Shown here: one piece after another, positions 1,764 through 12,910 of the stretch
How the letters are laid out: each line of letters starts with the position of its first letter
How positions within the stretch are numbered: position 1 is the first letter of the stretch
DNA from: a virus
Strand: one strand, 5' to 3'
DNA: 20,377 bases
IMG/VR virus record: IMGVR_UViG_3300046007_008356
Span: 1 to 20,377 of that record
Translations under genes and position numbers: made by a program
The notes under the pieces: generated by a model
What the model was told of the DNA's origin: nothing
The model's database searches: none
What the model saw: only the letters and a program-made list of their open reading frames with translations

Positions 1764-3141
1764 TGTAGACGTACAGAGGTTGTTTCTGGAGATGATGCTG
1801 CAGGATGCACAGAGTTATGTGCGTGTGCAGAATATTTATAATCCTGAGAACTTCGATCGCAGTCTACGGACAGCCGCAGAATTCATCCGGCAACACAGTA
1901 ATGATCACAAGACCATGCCGGTGCTGGAACAGGTGGTGGCAGCCACCAACACGAAATTATCGCATGTGCCAGATCTCACAGAAGATCATTTCGCCTGGTT
2001 TATGGAAGAGTTCGAAGCCTTTACACGCCGCCAGGAACTGGAACGGGCGATTTTAAAATCTGCAGACTTGCTGGAAAAAGGCGAGTACGATCCTGTAGAG
2101 AAACTGATCAAAGATGCGGTACAGATCAGCCTCACCAAGGACATGGGCACAGACTACTGGGAAGATCCTCGTGCCCGCATCAATCGATATTTCAACTCCG
2201 GCGGCCAGGTAAGCACAGGATGGCCGCAGCTGGATCGTCTGCTCTATGGAGGATTCAGCCGCGGCGAGCTCAACATCTTTGCTGGTGGATCTGGATCGGG
2301 CAAAAGTCTGGTGATGATGAACATCGCATTGAACTGGTTGCAAGCCGGGCTCAGTGGCGTGTATGTCACATTGGAACTCAGCGAAGAACTATGTGCCTTG
2401 CGGACAGATGCCATGCTCACCAATGCATCAACCAAGGACATACGACGAGATATCGATACCACGGAACTCAAGGTCAAATTGGTAGGTAAAAAAGCCGGAC
2501 AATATAGGATCAAAGGATTTCCGGCACAGAGCAACATCAACGACATCCGAGCCTATCTCAAAGAAGCACAGATACAGACTGGCATCCGAGTGGACTTTGT
2601 TATGATTGACTATCTAGATCTGCTGATGCCAGTGAGTGCCAAGGTCAGCCCCAATGACCTGTTCGTAAAAGACAAGTATGTGTCGGAAGAACTGCGTAAC
2701 TTAGCAAAGGAACTGGGTGTGCTCATGGTCACTGCGTCGCAGTTGAACAGATCAGCAGTGGAAGAGATCGAGTTTGATCACAGCCATATTTCTGGTGGTA
2801 TTTCCAAGATCAACACAGCCGACAATGTGTTTGGCATATTCACTAGCAGGGCCATGCGAGAGCGTGGACGCTATCAGATTCAGTGTATGAAATCTCGCAG
2901 TAGCACAGGTGTAGGTCAAAAGATTGATCTTGAGTACAACATTGAGACCATGCGTATCACTGACGCAGGCGAAGAACAGTCACAAAATGCACCAGGATTT
3001 GCCAAGTCCGCTATATATGATTCGATCAAGGCTCGAAGTCGTGTGGCAGATTCCACTGACAACGAGGATACTGGAAAAATCACAGCCGAAGTACAAGGCA
3101 ACAAACTCAAACAACTGCTGGGACAGATCAAACAATCATGA
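1747..3141 (+). CDS. Replicative DNA helicase, DnaB/T4 gp41-type
   Basis: Hexameric RecA-fold helicase expected to unwind the fork and work with the primase encoded just upstream. Walker A is GGSGSGKS (Lys186), Walker B is VMIDYLD (about 285-291), and the downstream TASQLNR (about 329-335) is the Q-containing sensor motif. The N-terminal 140 residues are helical, as in the gp41 N-domain. The length of 464 residues fits gp41 (475 in T4). I keep the TTG start at 1747 because a purine-rich AAGGAAGAGG ribosome site lies at 1733-1742 and the N-terminal sequence is family-like; the next in-frame Met (residue 16) would trim the N-domain. The frame is continuous, with no intein or intron. Confidence 0.9.
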   Translation: MLKDYSVDVQRLFLEMMLQDAQSYVRVQNIYNPENFDRSLRTAAEFIRQHSNDHKTMPVLEQVVAATNTKLSHVPDLTEDHFAWFMEEFEAFTRRQELERAILKSADLLEKGEYDPVEKLIKDAVQISLTKDMGTDYWEDPRARINRYFNSGGQVSTGWPQLDRLLYGGFSRGELNIFAGGSGSGKSLVMMNIALNWLQAGLSGVYVTLELSEELCALRTDAMLTNASTKDIRRDIDTTELKVKLVGKKAGQYRIKGFPAQSNINDIRAYLKEAQIQTGIRVDFVMIDYLDLLMPVSAKVSPNDLFVKDKYVSEELRNLAKELGVLMVTASQLNRSAVEEIEFDHSHISGGISKINTADNVFGIFTSRAMRERGRYQIQCMKSRSSTGVGQKIDLEYNIETMRITDAGEEQSQNAPGFAKSAIYDSIKARSRVADSTDNEDTGKITAEVQGNKLKQLLGQIKQS

Positions 3142-4256
3142 GTGATCTGTACTGTTCCATGATACACGGAGGTCTCAATCTGGACCTCAAAATGCAGTCA
3201 CAGATCCGTGTGCAACACTGCTGCCTGCGTGATGATCTATGGCCAGTCAATGATCTCAAGGACGTCTGGCACAATCAAAATTATATCCCTCTGCGTGCTG
3301 TCAATCTAGAAAACAAATGGGCCGACGGATGTGCCAACTGTGAAAATCTAGAAAAAAGCGGCATGTACAGTTTCCGCAATGGCATGAATGATGGACTGGA
3401 AATCTTCAAGCAGCAGGATCTATCTGGACCGGCCCGGATCGATCTCATGTTTGACATCAGCTGCAATCTGGCCTGCAGGACCTGCGGTACATGGTCCAGC
3501 ACCTTCTGGCAAAAGCATCTCAAACAGCATGGAGAGTGGAACCAACCTATTTTCACTCCCAGGAACAAACAAGACGTGATTGAGTGTTTGAAAAATCTCG
3601 ATCTTTCCAATCTCCGACAGGTGGTATTCTGTGGCGGAGAAACATTGATGGGGCAAGAATATTGGCATGTGGCAGAATGGTTGGCTGATAATGTGCCCAA
3701 TGCCAAACAAAACCTCATGATCTGCTTCCAGACCAATGGCACACAGCCCATATCACAAAGACAGTTTGGCATCATTGAAAAATTGTCGCTGGTAAAATTG
3801 CACATTAGCATCGATGGTCTACAGCAACGGTTTGAATATCTACGTTGGCCAGCTCAATGGAATCAGGTGGTTGACAATATCATGGACATAAGACAACACT
3901 GTCCTAGCAATGTGATGTTCGTGATAGAAGAAACTATTTCCATATTCAATCTGGCATACCTAGAAGAAACCGATCGATGGGTCAGAGAAAATTTTTCAAC
4001 CAATCGCGATGGTGACGTGGTCAATCACACACGACATCTGGCACACGGTCATTTTTCGTTGGTCAACTGCAGCCAAGAATATGTTGATCACATGGCATTG
4101 ACCACTGCAAAAAATCTCATCAATAAAAACTGGCAGGAAAATGCGGAATCTATATCCGTAATGATCAACGAAATTAAAAAATTTGATCTATACCGCGATC
4201 AATCTTTTGCTAGGACATTTCCCGAAGTGCATGAGCACTATAAGAGATTTTGGTAG
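3138..4256 (+). CDS. Radical SAM protein with N-terminal twitch-type cysteines
   Basis: The motif C109-x3-C113-x2-C116 (CNLACRTC) binds the 4Fe-4S cluster that cleaves S-adenosylmethionine, and CGGETL (165-170) is the GGE motif. Before the barrel, Cys28-Cys29 and C65-x2-C68 match the auxiliary-cluster (twitch/SPASM-like) layout of phage radical SAM proteins, so a second Fe-S cluster is likely. Later strands are present (FQTNGTQ, HISIDG). The substrate is unknown: peptide, tRNA or nucleotide modification are all open. The gene starts four bases inside the helicase gene (ATGA overlap), so it is coupled to the replication operon. Its last 47 bases overlap the end of the oppositely oriented gene at 4210-5289, which encodes a divergent relative with the same cysteine layout. 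Confidence 0.85.
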   Translation: MSDLYCSMIHGGLNLDLKMQSQIRVQHCCLRDDLWPVNDLKDVWHNQNYIPLRAVNLENKWADGCANCENLEKSGMYSFRNGMNDGLEIFKQQDLSGPARIDLMFDISCNLACRTCGTWSSTFWQKHLKQHGEWNQPIFTPRNKQDVIECLKNLDLSNLRQVVFCGGETLMGQEYWHVAEWLADNVPNAKQNLMICFQTNGTQPISQRQFGIIEKLSLVKLHISIDGLQQRFEYLRWPAQWNQVVDNIMDIRQHCPSNVMFVIEETISIFNLAYLEETDRWVRENFSTNRDGDVVNHTRHLAHGHFSLVNCSQEYVDHMALTTAKNLINKNWQENAESISVMINEIKKFDLYRDQSFARTFPEVHEHYKRFW

Positions 4257-5289
4257 CAGCAAAATCTGGCAAGTAATCACTGATAGCGATCTGTTTGAGA
4301 TTGTCTTGACGATCGAGTTCTTGCCAACACCTCGTCCAGGAATCAGCACTGTATTTTCCCATGCTGAGAAATGGCAATACCTCAGCAGCATTATTGAGAT
4401 TCTGTTGCATGATCTGATTCTTGAAGTCACTGGGCAGATTACCAGGACTGAAGCAATCTGGACTAAAGATCTGTTTGCAGAGGTAAGGCAGATTTTCTCT
4501 GCGGAAAAAATCTATGGTACTGTCGAGATAGAACAAGCTGAGATTTGAGACCATGCAGCTGACACTGACATGTTTGGAAAAACTCCTTAGCCTGTTGAGA
4601 TTGTCCAACAGCATGTTCCATTCCAGAGGATATCTGAGGTATTCAAAGGCCTGTCCAGTGGCATCTATGCTAAAACATACATTGAGATTTTTGAAGGCTG
4701 TCAGCAATTCAAACTGCCGCTGGCTGAGTTCGATCGAACCATTGGTGACCAGAGATATGAAACAGTCATGATTTCCTTGATCCAGCAGATTTTGCAATAT
4801 ATCAAAATTCTTTTTTTCCAACAAAGGTTCGCCACCTACAAAGGAAAGCTGCACCACTTGAGACCAGTCAATGTCCGACAATTCATTGAGCCCAGATCTA
4901 ATCATGATGGTTTTTTTCTTTTCCAGACTGGCCCAGGCCGAACTGTTATGGCTGTTGCAAGTTACACAGGTACCGTTGCAGATGTTAGAAGTGGCTATCT
5001 TTATGATCTTCGGAGAAAATCCCTTGGCCAATGCATCTTGCTTGATCAGGCCAATGTCACGATCAAGATAATGATCAAAAGTGCGATTGTGCATGAGTCT
5101 TTCGCTGTCTAGACCCTGATCTTCCAGAGTCCAGCAGGCAGCACAGTTAGTGCTTCTTTTATTGTGTCTGATACTGTCACGCACAGCATCTATGTCAGTG
5201 TGATTAGGTAAACGACAACAATAGATATTTTTTGGATTTCCATGAGTGATTTCCACACTGTAGAACGGTAATACGCAAAAGTTGTCCAT
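4210..5289 (-). CDS. Second radical SAM/twitch protein, only minus-strand gene
   Basis: This 359-residue protein shares the architecture of the plus-strand neighbour. It has C5, C24-C25 and C49-x2-C52 for an auxiliary cluster, then C104-x3-C108-x2-C111 (CNGTCVTC) for the SAM cluster, VGGEPLL (151-157) as the GGEP motif, LVTNGS and CFSIDATG as later barrel strands. Motif spacing and shared blocks (Q-RQFELL versus Q-RQFGII; FEYLR-P-EWN versus FEYLRWPAQWN) indicate the two are paralogues. The start ATG (complement of 5287-5289) is preceded on its strand by TGTAAATA then four C, resembling the late promoter boxes elsewhere here. The substrate is unknown. The region is AT-richer than the flanking structural genes, and its opposite direction suggests separate acquisition. 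Confidence 0.85.
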   Translation of the reverse strand: MDNFCVLPFYSVEITHGNPKNIYCCRLPNHTDIDAVRDSIRHNKRSTNCAACWTLEDQGLDSERLMHNRTFDHYLDRDIGLIKQDALAKGFSPKIIKIATSNICNGTCVTCNSHNSSAWASLEKKKTIMIRSGLNELSDIDWSQVVQLSFVGGEPLLEKKNFDILQNLLDQGNHDCFISLVTNGSIELSQRQFELLTAFKNLNVCFSIDATGQAFEYLRYPLEWNMLLDNLNRLRSFSKHVSVSCMVSNLSLFYLDSTIDFFRRENLPYLCKQIFSPDCFSPGNLPSDFKNQIMQQNLNNAAEVLPFLSMGKYSADSWTRCWQELDRQDNLKQIAISDYLPDFAATKISYSAHALREMS

Positions 5290-5344: not shown

Positions 5345-5352
5345 GGTAAATA
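5345..5352 (+). promoter_or_regulatory. Putative T4-type late promoter box (GGTAAATA)
   Basis: GGTAAATAAG at 5345-5354 is repeated exactly at 7987-7996 before another late gene. It lies 21 bases before the ATG at 5374, in the 84-base divergent gap between the minus-strand radical SAM gene and the next plus-strand gene. It probably drives the small gene and the 780-residue protein late in infection. Confidence 0.55.
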
Positions 5353-5373: not shown

Positions 5374-5634
5374 ATGCAAAAACGCACACGAAGCATATTA
5401 GAAGAATTAGATGCGATATACGTGGAACGCCATGAGGATCGTGATCGCCGCTACATCATCGAAAGCCGGGCAAGCAACGTGATTGCAAGTGCTGTTCGGT
5501 TGGTAGAGCAGATCGAAGCAGCATATCCTGCTGATCAAGCAGAGAATCTAGTGCGTAAATTGCTGAACGCAATACGCACCAAGGACGCGGCCAAATTTGC
5601 CCGCACAGTGAGACGTACAGATGCAGATCTATGA
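5374..5634 (+). CDS. Small helical protein of unknown function
   Basis: 86 residues, rich in Arg, Glu and Ala, predicted from composition to be nearly all alpha-helix, with no membrane segment and no cysteines. The first half is strongly charged (RHEDRDRRY) and the second has the pattern of an amphipathic helix (VRLVEQIEAAY, LVRKLLNAI). I do not recognise the family. It lies between a late-type promoter box and the large nucleotidyltransferase/ligase-like gene, whose start it overlaps by 14 bases, so the two are probably co-expressed. A virion-assembly or partner role for the next protein is possible but unsupported by a motif. Confidence 0.7.
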   Translation: MQKRTRSILEELDAIYVERHEDRDRRYIIESRASNVIASAVRLVEQIEAAYPADQAENLVRKLLNAIRTKDAAKFARTVRRTDADL

Positions 5635-7963
5635 AATAACACGCCAACGCTTGGATGAAGTGGGGCTAATGACACGGCTGGGTGCGGCCTTGGGCAACCA
5701 GCAGGCCCAGGTGGCTACCAGCACAGCGGCCTTGAGCCAGGCTGCTCTCAAACAATGGAACAACAAAGTGCTGCAACTGCAACAGGCCAACCAAGGCATG
5801 CCCATCAGTGATCAAGAATACGACACCAATCTCGAAGATTTCGTAGATCGTGTTATGCTGCAAGGACGTCTTGACAGCCTGGATCAGACCAGTCTCACCC
5901 GCCTGACACCAGCCATGGATGCTGTGATCAAGGCCCGCAATGATCCCAAACTCCTGCCCGCAGCCTTTGAAAAGATGGTGGCCGTGGTCAACGTGGCTCG
6001 CCAAGATCCCGCCAAGTCCGCACAAACTTCACAGTTTACACCGCAACAGACCGCAGCCACAGTGAAACAGGTATTAGCGGGTGCCAATGTGAACACACAG
6101 GCTGTGGCCGCTGCCTTGCAACAGGCCGCAGGTGGGCAACTCACTGCTACCAAGCAACCCAATCCCATGATCAACAGCCTGCTCAACGCCCTGGGCGTGG
6201 CCACCCTGGTATGGTTGGAACACATGCTGCCCGGCTTGGATCTCCGCAACAACATGCTGGGATCCACGGGACTCAAGCCCACGTCCGGCGACATCGATAT
6301 CGCCGTGGATGCCAACTCAGTGACCAAGGAACAACTGGTCAAGCGGCTCACGGACTGGGCTGTGGCCAACAATTTTGATCCCCGAGATTGGGTGCGGAAG
6401 TCGGGTGTGGCCGTGCATTTCAAAACACCCATCGTGGGAGTACCTGAGCGTGGCTACGTGCAGACCGACTTCATGTTCCTCAACAAGCCCGAGTTCTCCA
6501 AGTTCATCCTGCGGCAGGATCCCAACAGTGAATACAAGGGTGCCACCCGCAATGTGTTGCTGAATTCCTTGGCCAAGAGCATGGGCTACAAACTGAACCA
6601 AAACGACGGCATCATGGACCGAACCACCAATGAATTGATCACGGATGACCCAGATCAGATCGCCCAGATGCTGCTTAACCCCCGGGCTACCCGAGAAGAT
6701 CTTGGGTCAGTGGAAAAGATCCTGGCACAGTTAAAAACAGATCCCAAACGTGATGCCAAACTGGCCGACTTCCGCGATCACATGCAGCGTGCAGGCACAC
6801 CGCTAGACGAAAACATTGGCTACACCGAAGTGAACTGGATGGCCCGACTGCGAGACAGAATCATGGTACAGGGCATGCAGGTCATCACCGAAGGGGTGCG
6901 TATCGAGCATCCTGAAGACCGAGTCTTGGATGCCGGCAGCCGAGGACTGACACAAGCTCTGCAGGGCATCTTGGCAGCGGCCCGGCAGCCCGAGACTACA
7001 ACGGTGAAATGGGACGGCAAGCCCGCCATCATATTTGGCCGCAAGCCCTCAGGCGAATTCGTGCTCACAGACAAGTCGGGATTCCTGGCCAAGGGCTATG
7101 ATGGCCTGGCCACATCACCTGAGCAGATCGAACAAATCATGGCTGCTCGAGGTGGTGAACGCGGCGAGTTGGTGGCCATCTACAAAAAATTATTCCCTCT
7201 GCTGAGACGCACAGTGCCCCAGGACTTCCGTGGCTATGTGCAGGGCGATCTGCTGTATGCTGCCCGTCCACCGGTGGTGCAAGGTGCCTATGAGTTCCAG
7301 CCCAACACAGTGAAATATCGTGTGCCCGTAGACAGTGAACTGGGGCAACAGATTGGTAAAAGCGAAGTTAGTGTGGTGGTGCACACACAGTTGGCAGCAC
7401 CGGGTGCTGCAGCACAGCCCATCACTGCCACGGATCTCGTGCCGGCCCCGGGCGTGTTGATCCTGGATCCCAGCCTGAGGACTTCAGGCGAGATCAAGTT
7501 GGACTCGGGCACAGTGAAAATCATCCAAGATATCATAGCCCAGCATGGTCGGGCCATTGATAAACTGTTCAACCCGCAAGAGCTGAGAGATCGCAGGATC
7601 ACGGATCTCCCGCAGTTGATCAAGCAGTACATGAACAGCCGTGTGCGATCCGGCAGTTATGACGACCTCATAGCAGGGTTTGGTACCTGGGTGCAACAAC
7701 AGGCTCCGGCCAAGGCCCCGCGGATATTTGACTGGGCCACACAGAACAAAACCGCCATGGCCGCTGTGTTTGAAGCGTTCTTGGCAGTGAGCCAACTCAA
7801 GAACGATCTAGTGCGTCAGTTAGATGCACAAGCACAGGATGTTTCAGCGTCGGTAAACGACGAACCTGGCCACGAAGGCTATGTGGGCCAGGGCATGAAA
7901 TTCGTGGATCGCATGAGATTCTCAGCCGCAAACTTCGCCCGAAACAATCCAGAACTAGCCTAG
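5621..7963 (+). CDS. Fusion of nucleotidyltransferase-like and ligase-like (DUF6267-type) domains
   Basis: A 780-residue protein with two recognisable catalytic-looking parts. Residues about 185-345 hold a polymerase-beta-type nucleotidyltransferase signature: GSTGLKPTSGDIDIAVD with Asp224 and Asp226, and a third carboxylate in QTDFMFL (Asp283). Residues about 425-600 resemble phage DUF6267 proteins: RIEHPEDRVLDAG, then VKWDGKPAII with Lys463 in a KxDG motif like motif I of ATP-dependent ligases and capping enzymes, then YVQGDLLY and FQPNTVKYRVP. The first 180 residues are Gln/Ala-rich and helical. The extreme N-terminus (MQIYEI...RLDE) carries LxE/IxE tripeptides like T4 prohead-protease sites. 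It overlaps the preceding gene by 14 bases. Substrates are unknown; nucleic-acid end joining or adenylylation is inference from the motifs. Confidence 0.7.
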   Translation: MQIYEITRQRLDEVGLMTRLGAALGNQQAQVATSTAALSQAALKQWNNKVLQLQQANQGMPISDQEYDTNLEDFVDRVMLQGRLDSLDQTSLTRLTPAMDAVIKARNDPKLLPAAFEKMVAVVNVARQDPAKSAQTSQFTPQQTAATVKQVLAGANVNTQAVAAALQQAAGGQLTATKQPNPMINSLLNALGVATLVWLEHMLPGLDLRNNMLGSTGLKPTSGDIDIAVDANSVTKEQLVKRLTDWAVANNFDPRDWVRKSGVAVHFKTPIVGVPERGYVQTDFMFLNKPEFSKFILRQDPNSEYKGATRNVLLNSLAKSMGYKLNQNDGIMDRTTNELITDDPDQIAQMLLNPRATREDLGSVEKILAQLKTDPKRDAKLADFRDHMQRAGTPLDENIGYTEVNWMARLRDRIMVQGMQVITEGVRIEHPEDRVLDAGSRGLTQALQGILAAARQPETTTVKWDGKPAIIFGRKPSGEFVLTDKSGFLAKGYDGLATSPEQIEQIMAARGGERGELVAIYKKLFPLLRRTVPQDFRGYVQGDLLYAARPPVVQGAYEFQPNTVKYRVPVDSELGQQIGKSEVSVVVHTQLAAPGAAAQPITATDLVPAPGVLILDPSLRTSGEIKLDSGTVKIIQDIIAQHGRAIDKLFNPQELRDRRITDLPQLIKQYMNSRVRSGSYDDLIAGFGTWVQQQAPAKAPRIFDWATQNKTAMAAVFEAFLAVSQLKNDLVRQLDAQAQDVSASVNDEPGHEGYVGQGMKFVDRMRFSAANFARNNPELA

Positions 7964-7986
7964 AGCCAGCCATTTTTGTCAGATTT

Positions 7987-7994
7987 GGTAAATA
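7987..7994 (+). promoter_or_regulatory. Putative T4-type late promoter box (GGTAAATA)
   Basis: GGTAAATA lies 39 bases before the ATG at 8034, a comfortable distance for a late leader, and the ten-base GGTAAATAAG is identical to that at 5345. It starts the self-contained cassette of the small structural gene that ends in a strong terminator. Confidence 0.6.
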
Positions 7995-8026
7995 AGTGCA
8001 GAGGCAGAGCCTCACTTACTAAGGAG
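7994..8026 (+). promoter_or_regulatory. Leader hairpin and strong ribosome binding site
   Basis: AAGTG (7994-7998) pairs with CACTT (8013-8017) and AGGC (8002-8005) with GCCT (8009-8012), giving a nine-pair stem with a three-base bulge and an AGA loop just downstream of the late promoter box. AAGGAG at 8021-8026 is the best Shine-Dalgarno in the window, seven bases before the ATG. This suits a highly expressed, stable message. If transcription begins near 8000, the outer part of the stem is lost. Confidence 0.4.
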
Positions 8027-8033
8027 ACTTAAA

Positions 8034-8513
8034 ATGGCATTTTTCCCACCCGCGAATGGTGATTCGCAACCAGTATTTGCACTAGACATCAACAACGGTC
8101 CTCAGTCCGCTCAGATCTCGTCAGCTGCCTTGGTGCAGATGGCAGGTCCCAAGTTAGACTTCATCGCATTGATCGTTGAGAATGCATCAAACCAGGCCAT
8201 CGACCTACGCAACCAGTTGGGTAATGCCAACGGCGGCGGCACAGGCGTGTTCAATCCTGGTGTTGTCAACACTATCAATGCAGCGATCCAGCGTACTTCT
8301 ACCATCGCTTTCTACCAGGTAGAAGCCACCACGACAGGCCAGATTTCTTATGGTATCTATCCTTCGGGTGCTTTCGCCAACGCCACAGACCTCGGCAACG
8401 TGGTCGCTGGTCTCGGCACAGTCACAGTCACTGAAGAAGATGGCACAACCAACTCAGTGGACGTTTCTGGTTCGCAGAGCACCAATGTTGGTTTCAAACT
8501 GGCATTGTCGTAA
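8034..8513 (+). CDS. Small, probably abundant virion structural protein
   Basis: 159 residues without cysteine or a membrane segment, rich in Ala, Asn, Gln, Thr and Val, as in head-decoration or tail-surface proteins. N-terminal MAFFPPANGDSQPVFALD resembles the start of small structural proteins in T4-like marine phages. The C-terminal third (VAGLGTVTVTEEDGTTNSVD then VGFKLALS) looks like beta strands. It has its own late promoter box, the strongest ribosome site in the window (AAGGAG) and a near-perfect intrinsic terminator right after it, an arrangement typical of a protein made in large amounts. The exact virion location (head decoration, tail or fibre) cannot be told from sequence alone. 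Confidence 0.65.
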   Translation: MAFFPPANGDSQPVFALDINNGPQSAQISSAALVQMAGPKLDFIALIVENASNQAIDLRNQLGNANGGGTGVFNPGVVNTINAAIQRTSTIAFYQVEATTTGQISYGIYPSGAFANATDLGNVVAGLGTVTVTEEDGTTNSVDVSGSQSTNVGFKLALS

Positions 8514-11595: not shown

Positions 11596-11603
11596 TATAA
11601 ATA
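11596..11603 (+). promoter_or_regulatory. Exact T4 late promoter TATAAATA before the HNH gene
   Basis: This octamer matches the T4 late consensus in all eight positions, the only perfect one noted in the window. It ends five bases before the ATG at 11609, so by T4 geometry transcription begins on the A of the start codon, giving a leaderless late message. Its last three bases are also the beginning of the left hairpin arm. Confidence 0.65.
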
Positions 11604-11620
11604 CTTGCATGAGCAAGTAT
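11601..11620 (+). promoter_or_regulatory. Perfect 8-bp hairpin with the HNH start codon in its loop
   Basis: ATACTTGC (11601-11608) and GCAAGTAT (11613-11620) are exact reverse complements; the four-base loop ATGA contains the start codon. In a message read through from upstream, the start codon would be trapped; in a message begun at the late promoter, the left arm is absent and the start is free. It could also be a protein operator, being a 20-base perfect dyad. Confidence 0.65.
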
Positions 11621-12208
11621 GGCATTCAAAAAAACTGTTTGTACTGTGGGTCGTTATTTGTGACTGTACCTCGCAAAGTCGATTACTGTTCACAACCTTG
11701 CAAAAATCCTCGTAACAGACCGGGTCACTCGGCCTGGAACAAAGGTCTCAAGATGACAGATGAATTTAAACAAACAAAAATGAATCTTGCTGGGCTTGCT
11801 AAGGGGTGGGGTTGGAACAAAGGAATACCAAATGAAAGACAAAGAGAGAAATGGTTAAAAGACAATCCCAACAAGGATGGCAAAGCAAATAACCAAAGAC
11901 CGAAAAATCCTATCACCGATCCATTGAGAAAGTATAGAAGCAAGGTAAGACACGCTACTTATAGAACTCTTAGAGAAATGAGAGACCAAGGCGAGTGGAT
12001 TCCTGAGAGGGGTAAAGGTCCAGATGATTGGCAACTTGATCACATCATACCTCATAAGCAAGGGTTTGATTTAGGTATAGAACCCTCTTTACTTGGACGA
12101 AGGAATAATATACAATTTATAAAGGGTAAAGACAACAGAAAAAAGTGGGACACATATCAACCACTTGATGTTGTGAAAGCTATAACAGGAGAAAACAATG
12201 GCCTATAG
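11609..12208 (+). CDS. Free-standing HNH homing endonuclease
   Basis: 199 residues: an N-terminal zinc finger (C10-x2-C13, C27-x3-C31), then NUMOD3-like DNA-binding repeats (HSAWNKGLKMTDEFKQ and GWNKGIPNERQRE), then an HNH nuclease (WQLDHIIPHKQGF with Asp144-His145, RRNNIQF with Asn167, KDNRKKW with Asn176). It is expected to cut DNA in phage genomes lacking the gene and promote its own spread. It is distinctly AT- and Lys-rich compared with the structural genes upstream, a sign of recent transfer. Its last 11 bases overlap the start of iscU, with AGGAGA for that gene inside it. Start and expression control look special: an exact late promoter and a start-codon hairpin. Confidence 0.9.
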   Translation: MSKYGIQKNCLYCGSLFVTVPRKVDYCSQPCKNPRNRPGHSAWNKGLKMTDEFKQTKMNLAGLAKGWGWNKGIPNERQREKWLKDNPNKDGKANNQRPKNPITDPLRKYRSKVRHATYRTLREMRDQGEWIPERGKGPDDWQLDHIIPHKQGFDLGIEPSLLGRRNNIQFIKGKDNRKKWDTYQPLDVVKAITGENNGL

Positions 12209-12597
12209 CGATAAAGTTTTGGATCATTATAATAATCCCAGAAATGTTGGGAGTTTAGATAAAGGAGATGCGCATGTCGGCACCGGTATGGTTGGTGCTC
12301 CGGCATGCGGCTGAGGGCGATGTAATGAAACTTCAGATCCAAGTGGATCCAGAAACAAATATCATCACAGATGCCCGTTTCAAGACCTATGGCTGCGGTT
12401 CGGCCATTGCCAGCTCAAGCCTTGTCACTGAGTGGGTCAAAGGCAAGACACTTGACGAAGCCGCCACAATCCGTAACACCACCATCGCACAGGAACTGGC
12501 CTTACCGCCTGTAAAAATCCACTGTAGTATCTTGGCGGAGGATGCCATCAAGGCCGCCATAGAAGATTACCGCAAAAAACATGATCTCAGTCACTGA
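12198..12597 (+). CDS. iscU: IscU Fe-S scaffold protein, reading frame interrupted at the active site
   Basis: IscU receives sulfur and iron and assembles 2Fe-2S/4Fe-4S clusters. From ATG 12198 (AGGAGA upstream) the frame gives MAYSDKVLDHYNNPRNVGS... to GMVGAPACG, IscU residues 1-38, then UGA at 12312. In another frame, from 12319, it continues without error: DVMKLQ, FKTYGCGSAIASSSL, LPPVKIHCSILAEDAI, to the stop at 12597. Cys37, Asp39, the second Cys (about 64) and His-Cys (about 106-107) are therefore all encoded. Skipping seven bases between two GGC codons restores a 130-residue IscU (E. coli has 128). A +1 shift at UGA would add Glu-Gly. It may be a recoded gene, a new pseudogene or a sequence error. 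It overlaps iscA by 17 bases. Confidence 0.85.
12262..12276 (+). promoter_or_regulatory. Internal ribosome site that could restart IscU translation
   Basis: AAGGAG at 12262-12267 lies six bases before ATG 12274, which is in the frame of the IscU C-terminal part. Translation from here would give a product beginning MSAPVWLVLRHAAEG then DVMKLQ, lacking Cys37. It could be a chance match since the same bases encode the normal IscU sequence DKGDA. Confidence 0.3.
12309..12318 (+). other. GGC-TGA-G-GGC: candidate bypass or frameshift site
   Basis: GGC (Gly38) at 12309 is followed at once by stop TGA, one G, and a second GGC at 12316 which is in the frame of the rest of IscU. Identical take-off and landing glycine codons with a stop directly after take-off are the hallmarks of T4 gene 60 bypassing (there with GGA and a 50-base gap). 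Here the gap is only four bases. Confidence 0.5.
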
Positions 12598-12910
12598 CAT
12601 CGCCGCGGAAAAAATCAAAAGTTCCATATCTCGGCGTGGTCGAGGACTAGGCATCCATGTAGGTGTGCGTACCACTGGCTGTTCGGGACTGGCCTATACC
12701 CTTGAGTATGTGGATCAAGAACAGGGACAGCAGCACTGTGTGGCCCATTACGATCACAAAGGTGTGAGGATCTACGTCAAACCCGAACATTTGGTGTATT
12801 TGGACGGCATGATCATTGACTATCAAAAACGTGGCCTCAATGAAGGGTTTGAGTTTATCAATCAAAATGAAAAGGATCGCTGCGGCTGCGGTGAATCATT
12901 CCGAGTTTGA
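12581..12910 (+). CDS. iscA: IscA-type Fe-S cluster carrier/assembly protein
   Basis: 109 residues of the HesB/IscA/SufA family. The three cluster-binding cysteines are present: Cys34 in TTGCSGLAYTLEY, and Cys101 and Cys103 in CGCGESFRV at the C-terminus (E. coli IscA: 35, 99, 101). It accepts iron or clusters and hands them to client proteins. It starts 17 bases inside iscU and shares TTGA with the following gene, so the three are coupled. In bacteria iscU and iscA are likewise adjacent; here iscS, hscA/B and fdx are absent, so the phage would rely on the host for sulfur donation and chaperones. Confidence 0.92.
   Translation: MISVTDIAAEKIKSSISRRGRGLGIHVGVRTTGCSGLAYTLEYVDQEQGQQHCVAHYDHKGVRIYVKPEHLVYLDGMIIDYQKRGLNEGFEFINQNEKDRCGCGESFRV

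What the first reader, a model, noticed from the sequence alone, without database searches (positions are those of the whole stretch)
5621..7963. Nucleotidyltransferase plus ligase-like domains in one 780-residue late protein
The first core has the GS...GDIDIAVD signature with a third Asp, and the second has KWDG with downstream motifs like DUF6267 proteins. Fused, they could add a nucleotide and then join or adenylylate an end. It lies among late virion genes behind a late promoter, an odd place for a repair enzyme, suggesting action in the capsid or on entry. It could be an undescribed end-processing or anti-defence enzyme.
Basis: partly seen in the sequence, partly recalled or inferred. Interest (0 to 1): 0.65.

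Follow-up and report, generated by a model that had tools for sequence, protein, structure and literature searches.

The report
Phage virion polymerase-ligase end-repair fusion
A family of large water-dwelling phages carries one enzyme that pairs a DNA-polymerase-beta-like nucleotide-adding domain with an RNA-ligase-like joining domain; it appears to be made late and packed into the virus particle, so it may mend broken nucleic-acid ends the moment the phage enters a cell.

Summary
The ORF and both catalytic cores are real, but the 780-residue length is not the family norm. In six 92-98% identical relatives the locus holds two overlapping genes: a ~195-aa 'MQIYEIT...' protein, then a 615-aa enzyme starting MILAEGGNIFKD. 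A 92-bp deletion in this contig joins them and removes 30 N-terminal residues, nine of them invariant in the family.

The intact enzyme is a large family (571 confirmed IMG/VR loci). Catalytic residues of both domains are invariant or nearly so. AlphaFold (pLDDT 91) gives a family-X-polymerase-like palm/thumb (Z 10.6) plus a DUF6267 domain whose 50 best solved matches are all ATP-dependent RNA/DNA ligases (best Z 7.3), with ligase motifs I, III, IV and V and no OB domain.

Fourteen isolate phages carry separate NT and ligase-like genes; the same 14 carry both. In PA5oct the NT is annotated as a virion protein by ESI-MS/MS. Intact proteins begin with a short [L/I]xE|GG leader resembling the T4 prohead-protease site, and the longest genomes examined carry that protease.

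Best reading: a late-made, capsid-carried add-and-seal end-repair enzyme, analogous to RlaP + RNA ligase but a distinct family. Substrate (RNA or DNA) and activity are untested.

The parts
5345..5352 (+). degenerate T4-type late-promoter position (GGTAAATA, 6/8 of TATAAATA), 29 bp upstream of the operon's first gene
   Evidence: in 29 of 44 relatives [TA]ATAAATA lies within 150 nt upstream of this gene, 25-29 nt upstream in the examples printed
5374..5634 (+). 86-aa conserved small virion protein (phrog_11854), first gene of the cassette
   Evidence: phrog_11854 'virion structural protein' E 3.7e-12; same family beside NT/ligase genes in Atu_ph07 and Phosso
5621..6202 (+). upstream gene (~195 aa in relatives, starts MQIYEITRQRLDEVG with an [LI]xE leader), here fused in frame to the enzyme
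   Evidence: separate ORF in L002, L003, L005, L008, L034, L037
6195..6209 (+). deletion junction GCGTGGCCACCCTGG; 92 bp present in relatives are missing here (stop of upstream gene, start and first 30 codons of the enzyme)
6203..6898 (+). Pol-X-like nucleotidyltransferase domain (palm + thumb) and linker; first 30 residues lost in this contig
   Evidence: structure match of the intact relative to Pol lambda/beta/mu, Z 10.6, Foldseek prob 1.00
6260..6298 (+). NTase signature GSTGLKPTSGDID (G214, S215, D224, D226)
6467..6469 (+). third catalytic Asp (D283, QTDF)
   Evidence: invariant in 66 sequences and in jumbo-phage homologs
6902..7960 (+). DUF6267 domain, RNA/DNA-ligase-like covalent nucleotidyltransferase fold
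   Evidence: Pfam E 5.5e-44; top 50 structural matches all ATP-dependent ligases
7007..7018 (+). ligase motif I KWDG (K463, candidate adenylylated lysine)
   Evidence: KWDG in 99/99 intact relatives; invariant
7241..7258 (+). motif III-like QGDLLY (D543 invariant)
7874..7912 (+). motifs IV (EGYV, E752) and V (KFVDR, K760, R764)
   Evidence: invariant; similar EGxV...K motifs in ligase-like neighbours of jumbo-phage NT genes

Best explanation
The natural unit is a ~615-aa bifunctional nucleic-acid end-repair enzyme of T4-related large phages. Its N-terminal half is a polymerase-X-like nucleotidyltransferase that adds one or a few nucleotides to a 3' end; its C-terminal DUF6267 half is an Rnl-type ATP-dependent ligase that is adenylylated on Lys463 (window numbering) and seals the end. 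It is made late, has a short [L/I]xE leader that the prohead protease probably removes, is packed in the capsid with other core proteins, and enters the cell with the genome, so repair can begin before early genes are expressed. Shown here: the fold resemblances (from predicted models), invariant catalytic residues, co-occurrence of NT and ligase-like genes in isolates, synteny, leader pattern, and a deposited MS annotation for one homolog. Inferred: the activities, leader cleavage, injection, and the add-then-seal order. Substrate is open; I put RNA (for example nuclease-cleaved tRNA) slightly ahead of the incoming phage DNA.
For: Catalytic residues G49 (S50 at least 90%), D59, D61, D118, K298, D300, G301, D378, E587, G588, K595, R599 (615-aa numbering; add 165 for the window) conserved in 66 sequences. 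AF2 pLDDT 90.8 and 91.4. NT part vs Pol lambda Z 10.6, 181 residues, 3.3 A. DUF6267 vs Naegleria gruberi RNA ligase Z 7.3, 180 residues, 4.3 A, all 50 rows ligases. Viral structure library links DUF6267 to 'RNA ligase [Agrobacterium phage Atu_ph07]', 324 aa, prob 0.85, the same length as gp066 beside the Atu_ph07 NT homolog. NT profile vs Atu/Phosso/PA5oct NTs: hhalign prob 99.8, E 7e-29. The 14 isolate records with the NT are the same 14 with the ligase-like gene. Leader: P3 residue is L 42, I 23, V 1 of 66, then any residue, then E|GG; Atu and Phosso NTs start directly at MGG. T4-type prohead protease in L116's 344-kb contig, Atu_ph07, Phosso and PA5oct. Three IMG/VR relatives have a separate DNA ligase gene, so DUF6267 is unlikely to be the replicative ligase.
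Against: No biochemical data. No sequence-level match to any polymerase X or ligase in the PDB; the Pfam Pol-beta thumb is reached only at 13.4 bits, E 0.024, below cut-off, though at the predicted thumb position. Ligase-fold Z of 7.3 lies below the aligner's own caution line of 8. hhalign between DUF6267 and jumbo-phage ligase-like genes is weak (prob 11) and covers only motifs IV-V. The PA5oct ligase-like gene is not marked as a virion protein, and DUF6267 was not found among listed virion proteins of cyanophage S-SZBM1. The PA5oct NT has no [L/I]xE leader. MS of purified particles can include carry-over. No coordinates were available to measure the pockets.
Confidence: 0.55

Rival explanations
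1. DNA version: a gap-filling polymerase X plus nick-sealing ligase that repairs the incoming genome (gaps, nicks, UV or oxidative damage), comparable to viral base-excision-repair pairs.
For: Closest solved folds of the NT part are template-directed DNA polymerases beta/lambda/mu including the thumb; the gene cassette sits beside primase and DnaB helicase (also Phosso).
Against: Ligase half has no room for an OB domain after motif V and is structurally closest to RNA ligases; relatives already have a separate DNA ligase; host enzymes could do the job.
Confidence: 0.27
2. The virion-borne transferase modifies host proteins (adenylylation or similar) rather than nucleic acids, in the manner of the injected T4 ADP-ribosyltransferase Alt; the ligase-like half is an auto-adenylylating partner.
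For: Virion setting; T4 precedent of an injected modifying enzyme (PMC9026906); Pol-beta-type transferases with protein targets exist (general knowledge).
Against: Pairing with a ligase-like partner in all isolates and a conserved full motif set of a polynucleotide ligase fit end joining better.
Confidence: 0.1
3. The window's 780-aa reading is an assembly error or a broken gene, so this particular copy has no function as written (this concerns the copy, not the family).
For: 92-bp deletion, unique junction, loss of nine invariant residues E5 G6 G7 N8 F10 K11 G15 R21 I22.
Against: The join keeps the frame and all catalytic residues, and a second in-frame join to an upstream leader-bearing gene exists in L054.
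Confidence: 0.45
4. Ordinary structural role: a catalytically dead head protein that keeps enzyme folds only as scaffold.
For: Located among head-type genes; one homolog labelled structural protein.
Against: Catalytic positions of both domains are conserved across 66 diverse sequences while mean column identity is 56%.
Confidence: 0.07

Closest known systems
RlaP (PF10127) with ATP-grasp-type RNA ligases, phage RNA repair (PMC7824862)
   Same: Pol-beta-superfamily NTase acting beside a covalent ligase; predicted to restore lost nucleotides before ligation
   Different: No Pfam RlaP hit; Atu_ph07 has a true RlaP at another locus; here the two domains are fused, late and virion-linked
DUF6267 / phrog_455 proteins of T4-like cyanophages
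   Same: Same domain, same KWDG, GD, EGxV...KxVDR motifs; also next to or fused with another nucleotidyltransferase
   Different: Cyanophage partner is an NMNAT-like cytidylyltransferase, not a Pol-X-like domain
Family X DNA polymerases (beta, lambda, mu)
   Same: Palm and thumb arrangement, three acidic catalytic residues, GS motif
   Different: No 8-kDa lyase domain; no sequence-level match
Rnl-type RNA ligases (Naegleria gruberi Rnl, REL1, Trl1)
   Same: NTase-domain fold with motifs I, III, IV, V; no OB domain visible after motif V
   Different: About 200 residues, largely helical, between motifs III and IV; no sequence-level match
T4 internal head proteins and Alt (capsid-targeting sequence, gp21 site)
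   Same: Short N-terminal leader ending in [L/I]xE; T4-type protease in the longest related genomes
   Different: Leader usually only 5 residues; cleavage not shown
NT + ligase-like gene pairs of jumbo phages Atu_ph07, Phosso, PA5oct group
   Same: Homologous NT, adjacent or nearby ligase-like gene with EKxDG and EGxV...K motifs, same kind of cassette
   Different: Two separate genes rather than one; ligase not recognisably DUF6267 by sequence

Membership tests
DUF6267 (PF19782) | profile match above curated cut-off | tested here: met
   151.5 bits vs cut-off 27; 17/17 relatives
RlaP (PF10127) | profile match | tested here: not met
   no hit at E<=1 for the window protein or 17 relatives; no RlaP in seven IMG/VR relatives' records
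Family X polymerase | palm with GS and two Asp plus third Asp, all conserved | tested here: met
Family X polymerase | palm + thumb fold | tested here: met
   predicted model, Z 10.6 to Pol lambda over 181 residues
Family X polymerase | Pfam thumb profile above cut-off | tested here: not met
   best 13.4 bits vs 25 in the NT ORF
Family X polymerase | template-dependent nucleotide addition | not testable with these tools
   needs assay
Rnl-type RNA ligase | motifs I (KxDG), III, IV (EGxV), V (K) conserved | tested here: met
   motif assignment by eye
Rnl-type RNA ligase | ligase NTase fold | tested here: inconclusive
   all 50 rows ligases but Z at most 7.3, Foldseek prob 0.2-0.3
Rnl-type RNA ligase | Pfam RNA_ligase PF09414 match | tested here: not met
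   no hit for the window protein or relatives
Rnl-type RNA ligase | lysine adenylylation and strand joining | not testable with these tools
   needs assay
Prohead-protease-processed capsid protein | [L/I]xE site near the N terminus | tested here: met
   65 of 66 have L or I two before the Glu, one has V
Prohead-protease-processed capsid protein | T4-type protease gene in the same genome | tested here: met
   present in L116's 344-kb contig and three isolate jumbo phages; not seen in six shorter fragments
Prohead-protease-processed capsid protein | cleaved form present in virions | not testable with these tools
   only the deposited note ESI-MS/MS for the PA5oct NT, which lacks the leader

The most novel reading that the evidence does not exclude
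A capsid-packaged, prohead-protease-trimmed polymerase-X/ligase fusion that is injected with the genome and repairs cleaved tRNA or nicked/gapped incoming DNA at time zero of infection, ahead of any phage gene expression, as a pre-loaded counter to host nucleases.
Probability: 0.4. Interest if true: 0.82.

Novelty: new variant of a known kind. Interest (0 to 1): 0.6.

Why it matters
It gives a concrete, testable function to DUF6267, a family of unknown function found in 468 sequenced phage records, mostly cyanophages, and to a family of NT-ligase fusions with 571 confirmed loci in environmental viruses. If virion delivery holds, it would extend phage RNA/DNA repair from an early-gene response to a pre-loaded one, in the same class as injected T4 Alt. 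It also shows two unrelated nucleotidyltransferases (Pol-X-like and NMNAT-like) paired with the same ligase-like domain in virion-linked cassettes.

Tried and rejected
PDB sequence searches with the protein, NT profile and DUF6267 profile gave only chance matches. No paper in the library names DUF6267; a search for RlaP as a word returned no relevant paper; the primary RNA-repair paper (10.1093/nar/gkw722) is not held. Foldseek of the full model found no E<=0.001 match in PDB. The junction 20-mer was not found elsewhere. A scan of bacterial genomes found only one DUF6267 locus, on a contig of a Rickettsiales MAG, so no host assignment. Rejected: membership in RlaP (profile not met); the idea that the N-terminal 195 residues are part of the family (absent from intact relatives). 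The PA5oct proteomics paper itself was not found in the library; the MS claim rests on the GenBank note.

Full report
Observation. The ORF at 5621-7963 encodes 780 residues. DUF6267 covers 428-773. The record is a 20,377-base virus contig; flanking genes match primase, DnaB helicase, ribonucleotide reductase and virion families of tailed phages.

The length is derived. Six relatives at 92-98% identity have two genes in different frames: one ending ...NALGVATK*, overlapping the ATG of MILAEGGNIFKDADGVPVTQRIAQTDIKPT... The window lacks 92 bp between them, which fuses the frames and removes 30 residues, among them E5, G6, G7, N8, F10, K11, G15, R21 and I22 that are invariant in 66 relatives. The junction is unique in IMG/VR. 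Of 110 relatives with an upstream in-frame stop in the locus, one (L054) has a 235-residue in-frame extension made of another leader-bearing protein (MKIHDIFREG...) with the enzyme's own start kept. So joins to the preceding gene can occur, but are rare; whether this one is real needs reads.

Family. A profile search found 571 confirmed loci in IMG/VR, 80 kept. In 99 complete proteins KWDG is present in 99, the NT signature in 97, the third-Asp motif in 96 and the EGxV...KxVxR motif in 98 (these are regular-expression counts, and the aligned positions are invariant in the 66-sequence set).

Structure. A 66-sequence alignment gave a model at mean pLDDT 90.8 and pTM 0.58, so the two domains are well predicted but their relative placement is not. 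Residues 1-205 match family X polymerases, Z up to 10.6 over 181 residues (Foldseek E 3e-3, prob 1.00). DUF6267 alone (pLDDT 91.4, pTM 0.84) matches ATP-dependent RNA and DNA ligases only in the first 50 rows, best Naegleria gruberi RNA ligase at Z 7.3. This is under the aligner's caution line of 8; I accept the fold as likely because an independent line of evidence (motifs I, III, IV, V in the right order and invariant) agrees. About 18 residues follow motif V, so there is no room for an OB domain; this favours the RNA-ligase side. Pfam's Pol-beta thumb touches the L116 protein only weakly, but at the expected place (13.4 bits).

Split relatives. Atu_ph07 gp065, Phosso 447 and PA5oct EST35_0231 are homologous NTs (hhalign prob 99.8). 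Each has an adjacent or nearby ligase-like gene with EK(I/L)DG and EG(V/Y)V...K motifs; Pfam RNA_ligase reaches the Atu_ph07 and Phosso genes weakly. The NT search and the ligase-like search return the same 14 isolate records. All three carry a small gene of 81-83 aa near the pair (phrog_11854 in Atu_ph07 and Phosso; an unmatched 81-aa gene in PA5oct), as in the window.

Virion link. PA5oct EST35_0231 and neighbours 0226, 0227, 0230 and 0232-0235 are noted as found by ESI-MS/MS; the ligase-like 0228 is not. In intact fusions the start is a short leader ending [L/I]xE|GGN: the residue two before Glu is L 42, I 23, V 1, the residue between is variable, and the leader is 4-10 residues, mostly 5. 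Atu_ph07 and Phosso NTs begin directly at MGG, which suggests the leader is an added, removable part. T4 gp21 cuts head-protein propeptides, T4 targets internal proteins with N-terminal sequences, and a site that fits the gp21 logo is quoted as LIE-9 (PMC9026906); the general [L/I]xE rule is my own knowledge of T4. The 344-kb relative and the three isolates hold the T4-type protease. Six of 51 neighbouring gene families share the short leader in at least 60% of members against a mean of 4% at control positions; helicase and radical-SAM families lack it and primase nearly so. The window's own leader would be that of the upstream protein (MQIYEITRQRLDE|VG). Late promoters: TATAAATA occurs 77 times on the plus strand and 16 on the minus strand of the oriented loci, 28.5 expected per strand.

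Parallel in cyanophages. DUF6267 there lies beside or fused to an NMNAT-like cytidylyltransferase. Such a cytidylyltransferase/NMNAT was detected in virion preparations of S-SZBM1, S-SCSM1 and S-CREM2. In S-SZBM1 the DUF6267 gene itself was not in the printed list. This is a lead, not proof.

Mechanism. Fused NTase and ligase domains most simply act in turn on one substrate. RlaP + RNA ligase is the described precedent: predicted nucleotide restoration, then sealing of nuclease-cut RNA (PMC7824862). The present NT is not RlaP by profile, and Atu_ph07 has both. A separate DNA ligase in three fusion-bearing relatives argues against a replication role. DNA gap repair of the incoming genome remains a serious rival because of the Pol-X-like thumb.

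Verdict. It is a new variant of a known kind (NTase + ligase repair), with an unusual fusion, timing and likely virion location. Function is inferred.

Noticed in passing
window 4210-5289 (-) and 3138-4256 (+): Two convergent radical-SAM genes; the minus-strand one is 359 aa, just under Pfam's cut-off (29.1 vs 29.5 bits). The small plus-strand ORFs opposite it are probably not genes.
   Followed up: partly
window 12268-12597 and 12581-12910: Adjacent NifU_N (E 8e-38) and HesB/IscA-type Fe-S biosynthesis (E 8e-17) genes, a phage-borne iron-sulphur assembly pair in the same window as the radical-SAM genes.
   Followed up: no
window 11596-11603 and 11609-12208: Perfect TATAAATA late-promoter match right before a 199-aa ORF with zinc-finger and HNH-like residues (by eye), no Pfam hit.
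   Followed up: no
L033 4997, L015 9475, L058 803, L021 4247, window 10390 and 11226: Several unrelated gene families start with M-x-[IL]-x-E (MQIHEIT, MRLVEF, MRITELK, MQIFELA, MKLQEL), a possible shared capsid-targeting leader.
   Followed up: partly
L127 (S-SZBM1) 6004-8285; L041 5001-7277: Cyanophage DUF6267 gene followed directly by an NMNAT-like cytidylyltransferase gene; in S-SZBM1 that product is in the virion list; phrog_455 covers both genes.
   Followed up: partly
Phosso PV764938.1:118299-119132 (-): Second, divergent copy of the NT gene (E 4e-31).
   Followed up: no
L054 about 7296-8001: Independent in-frame join of an upstream leader-bearing protein to the enzyme, with no stop between.
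   Followed up: partly
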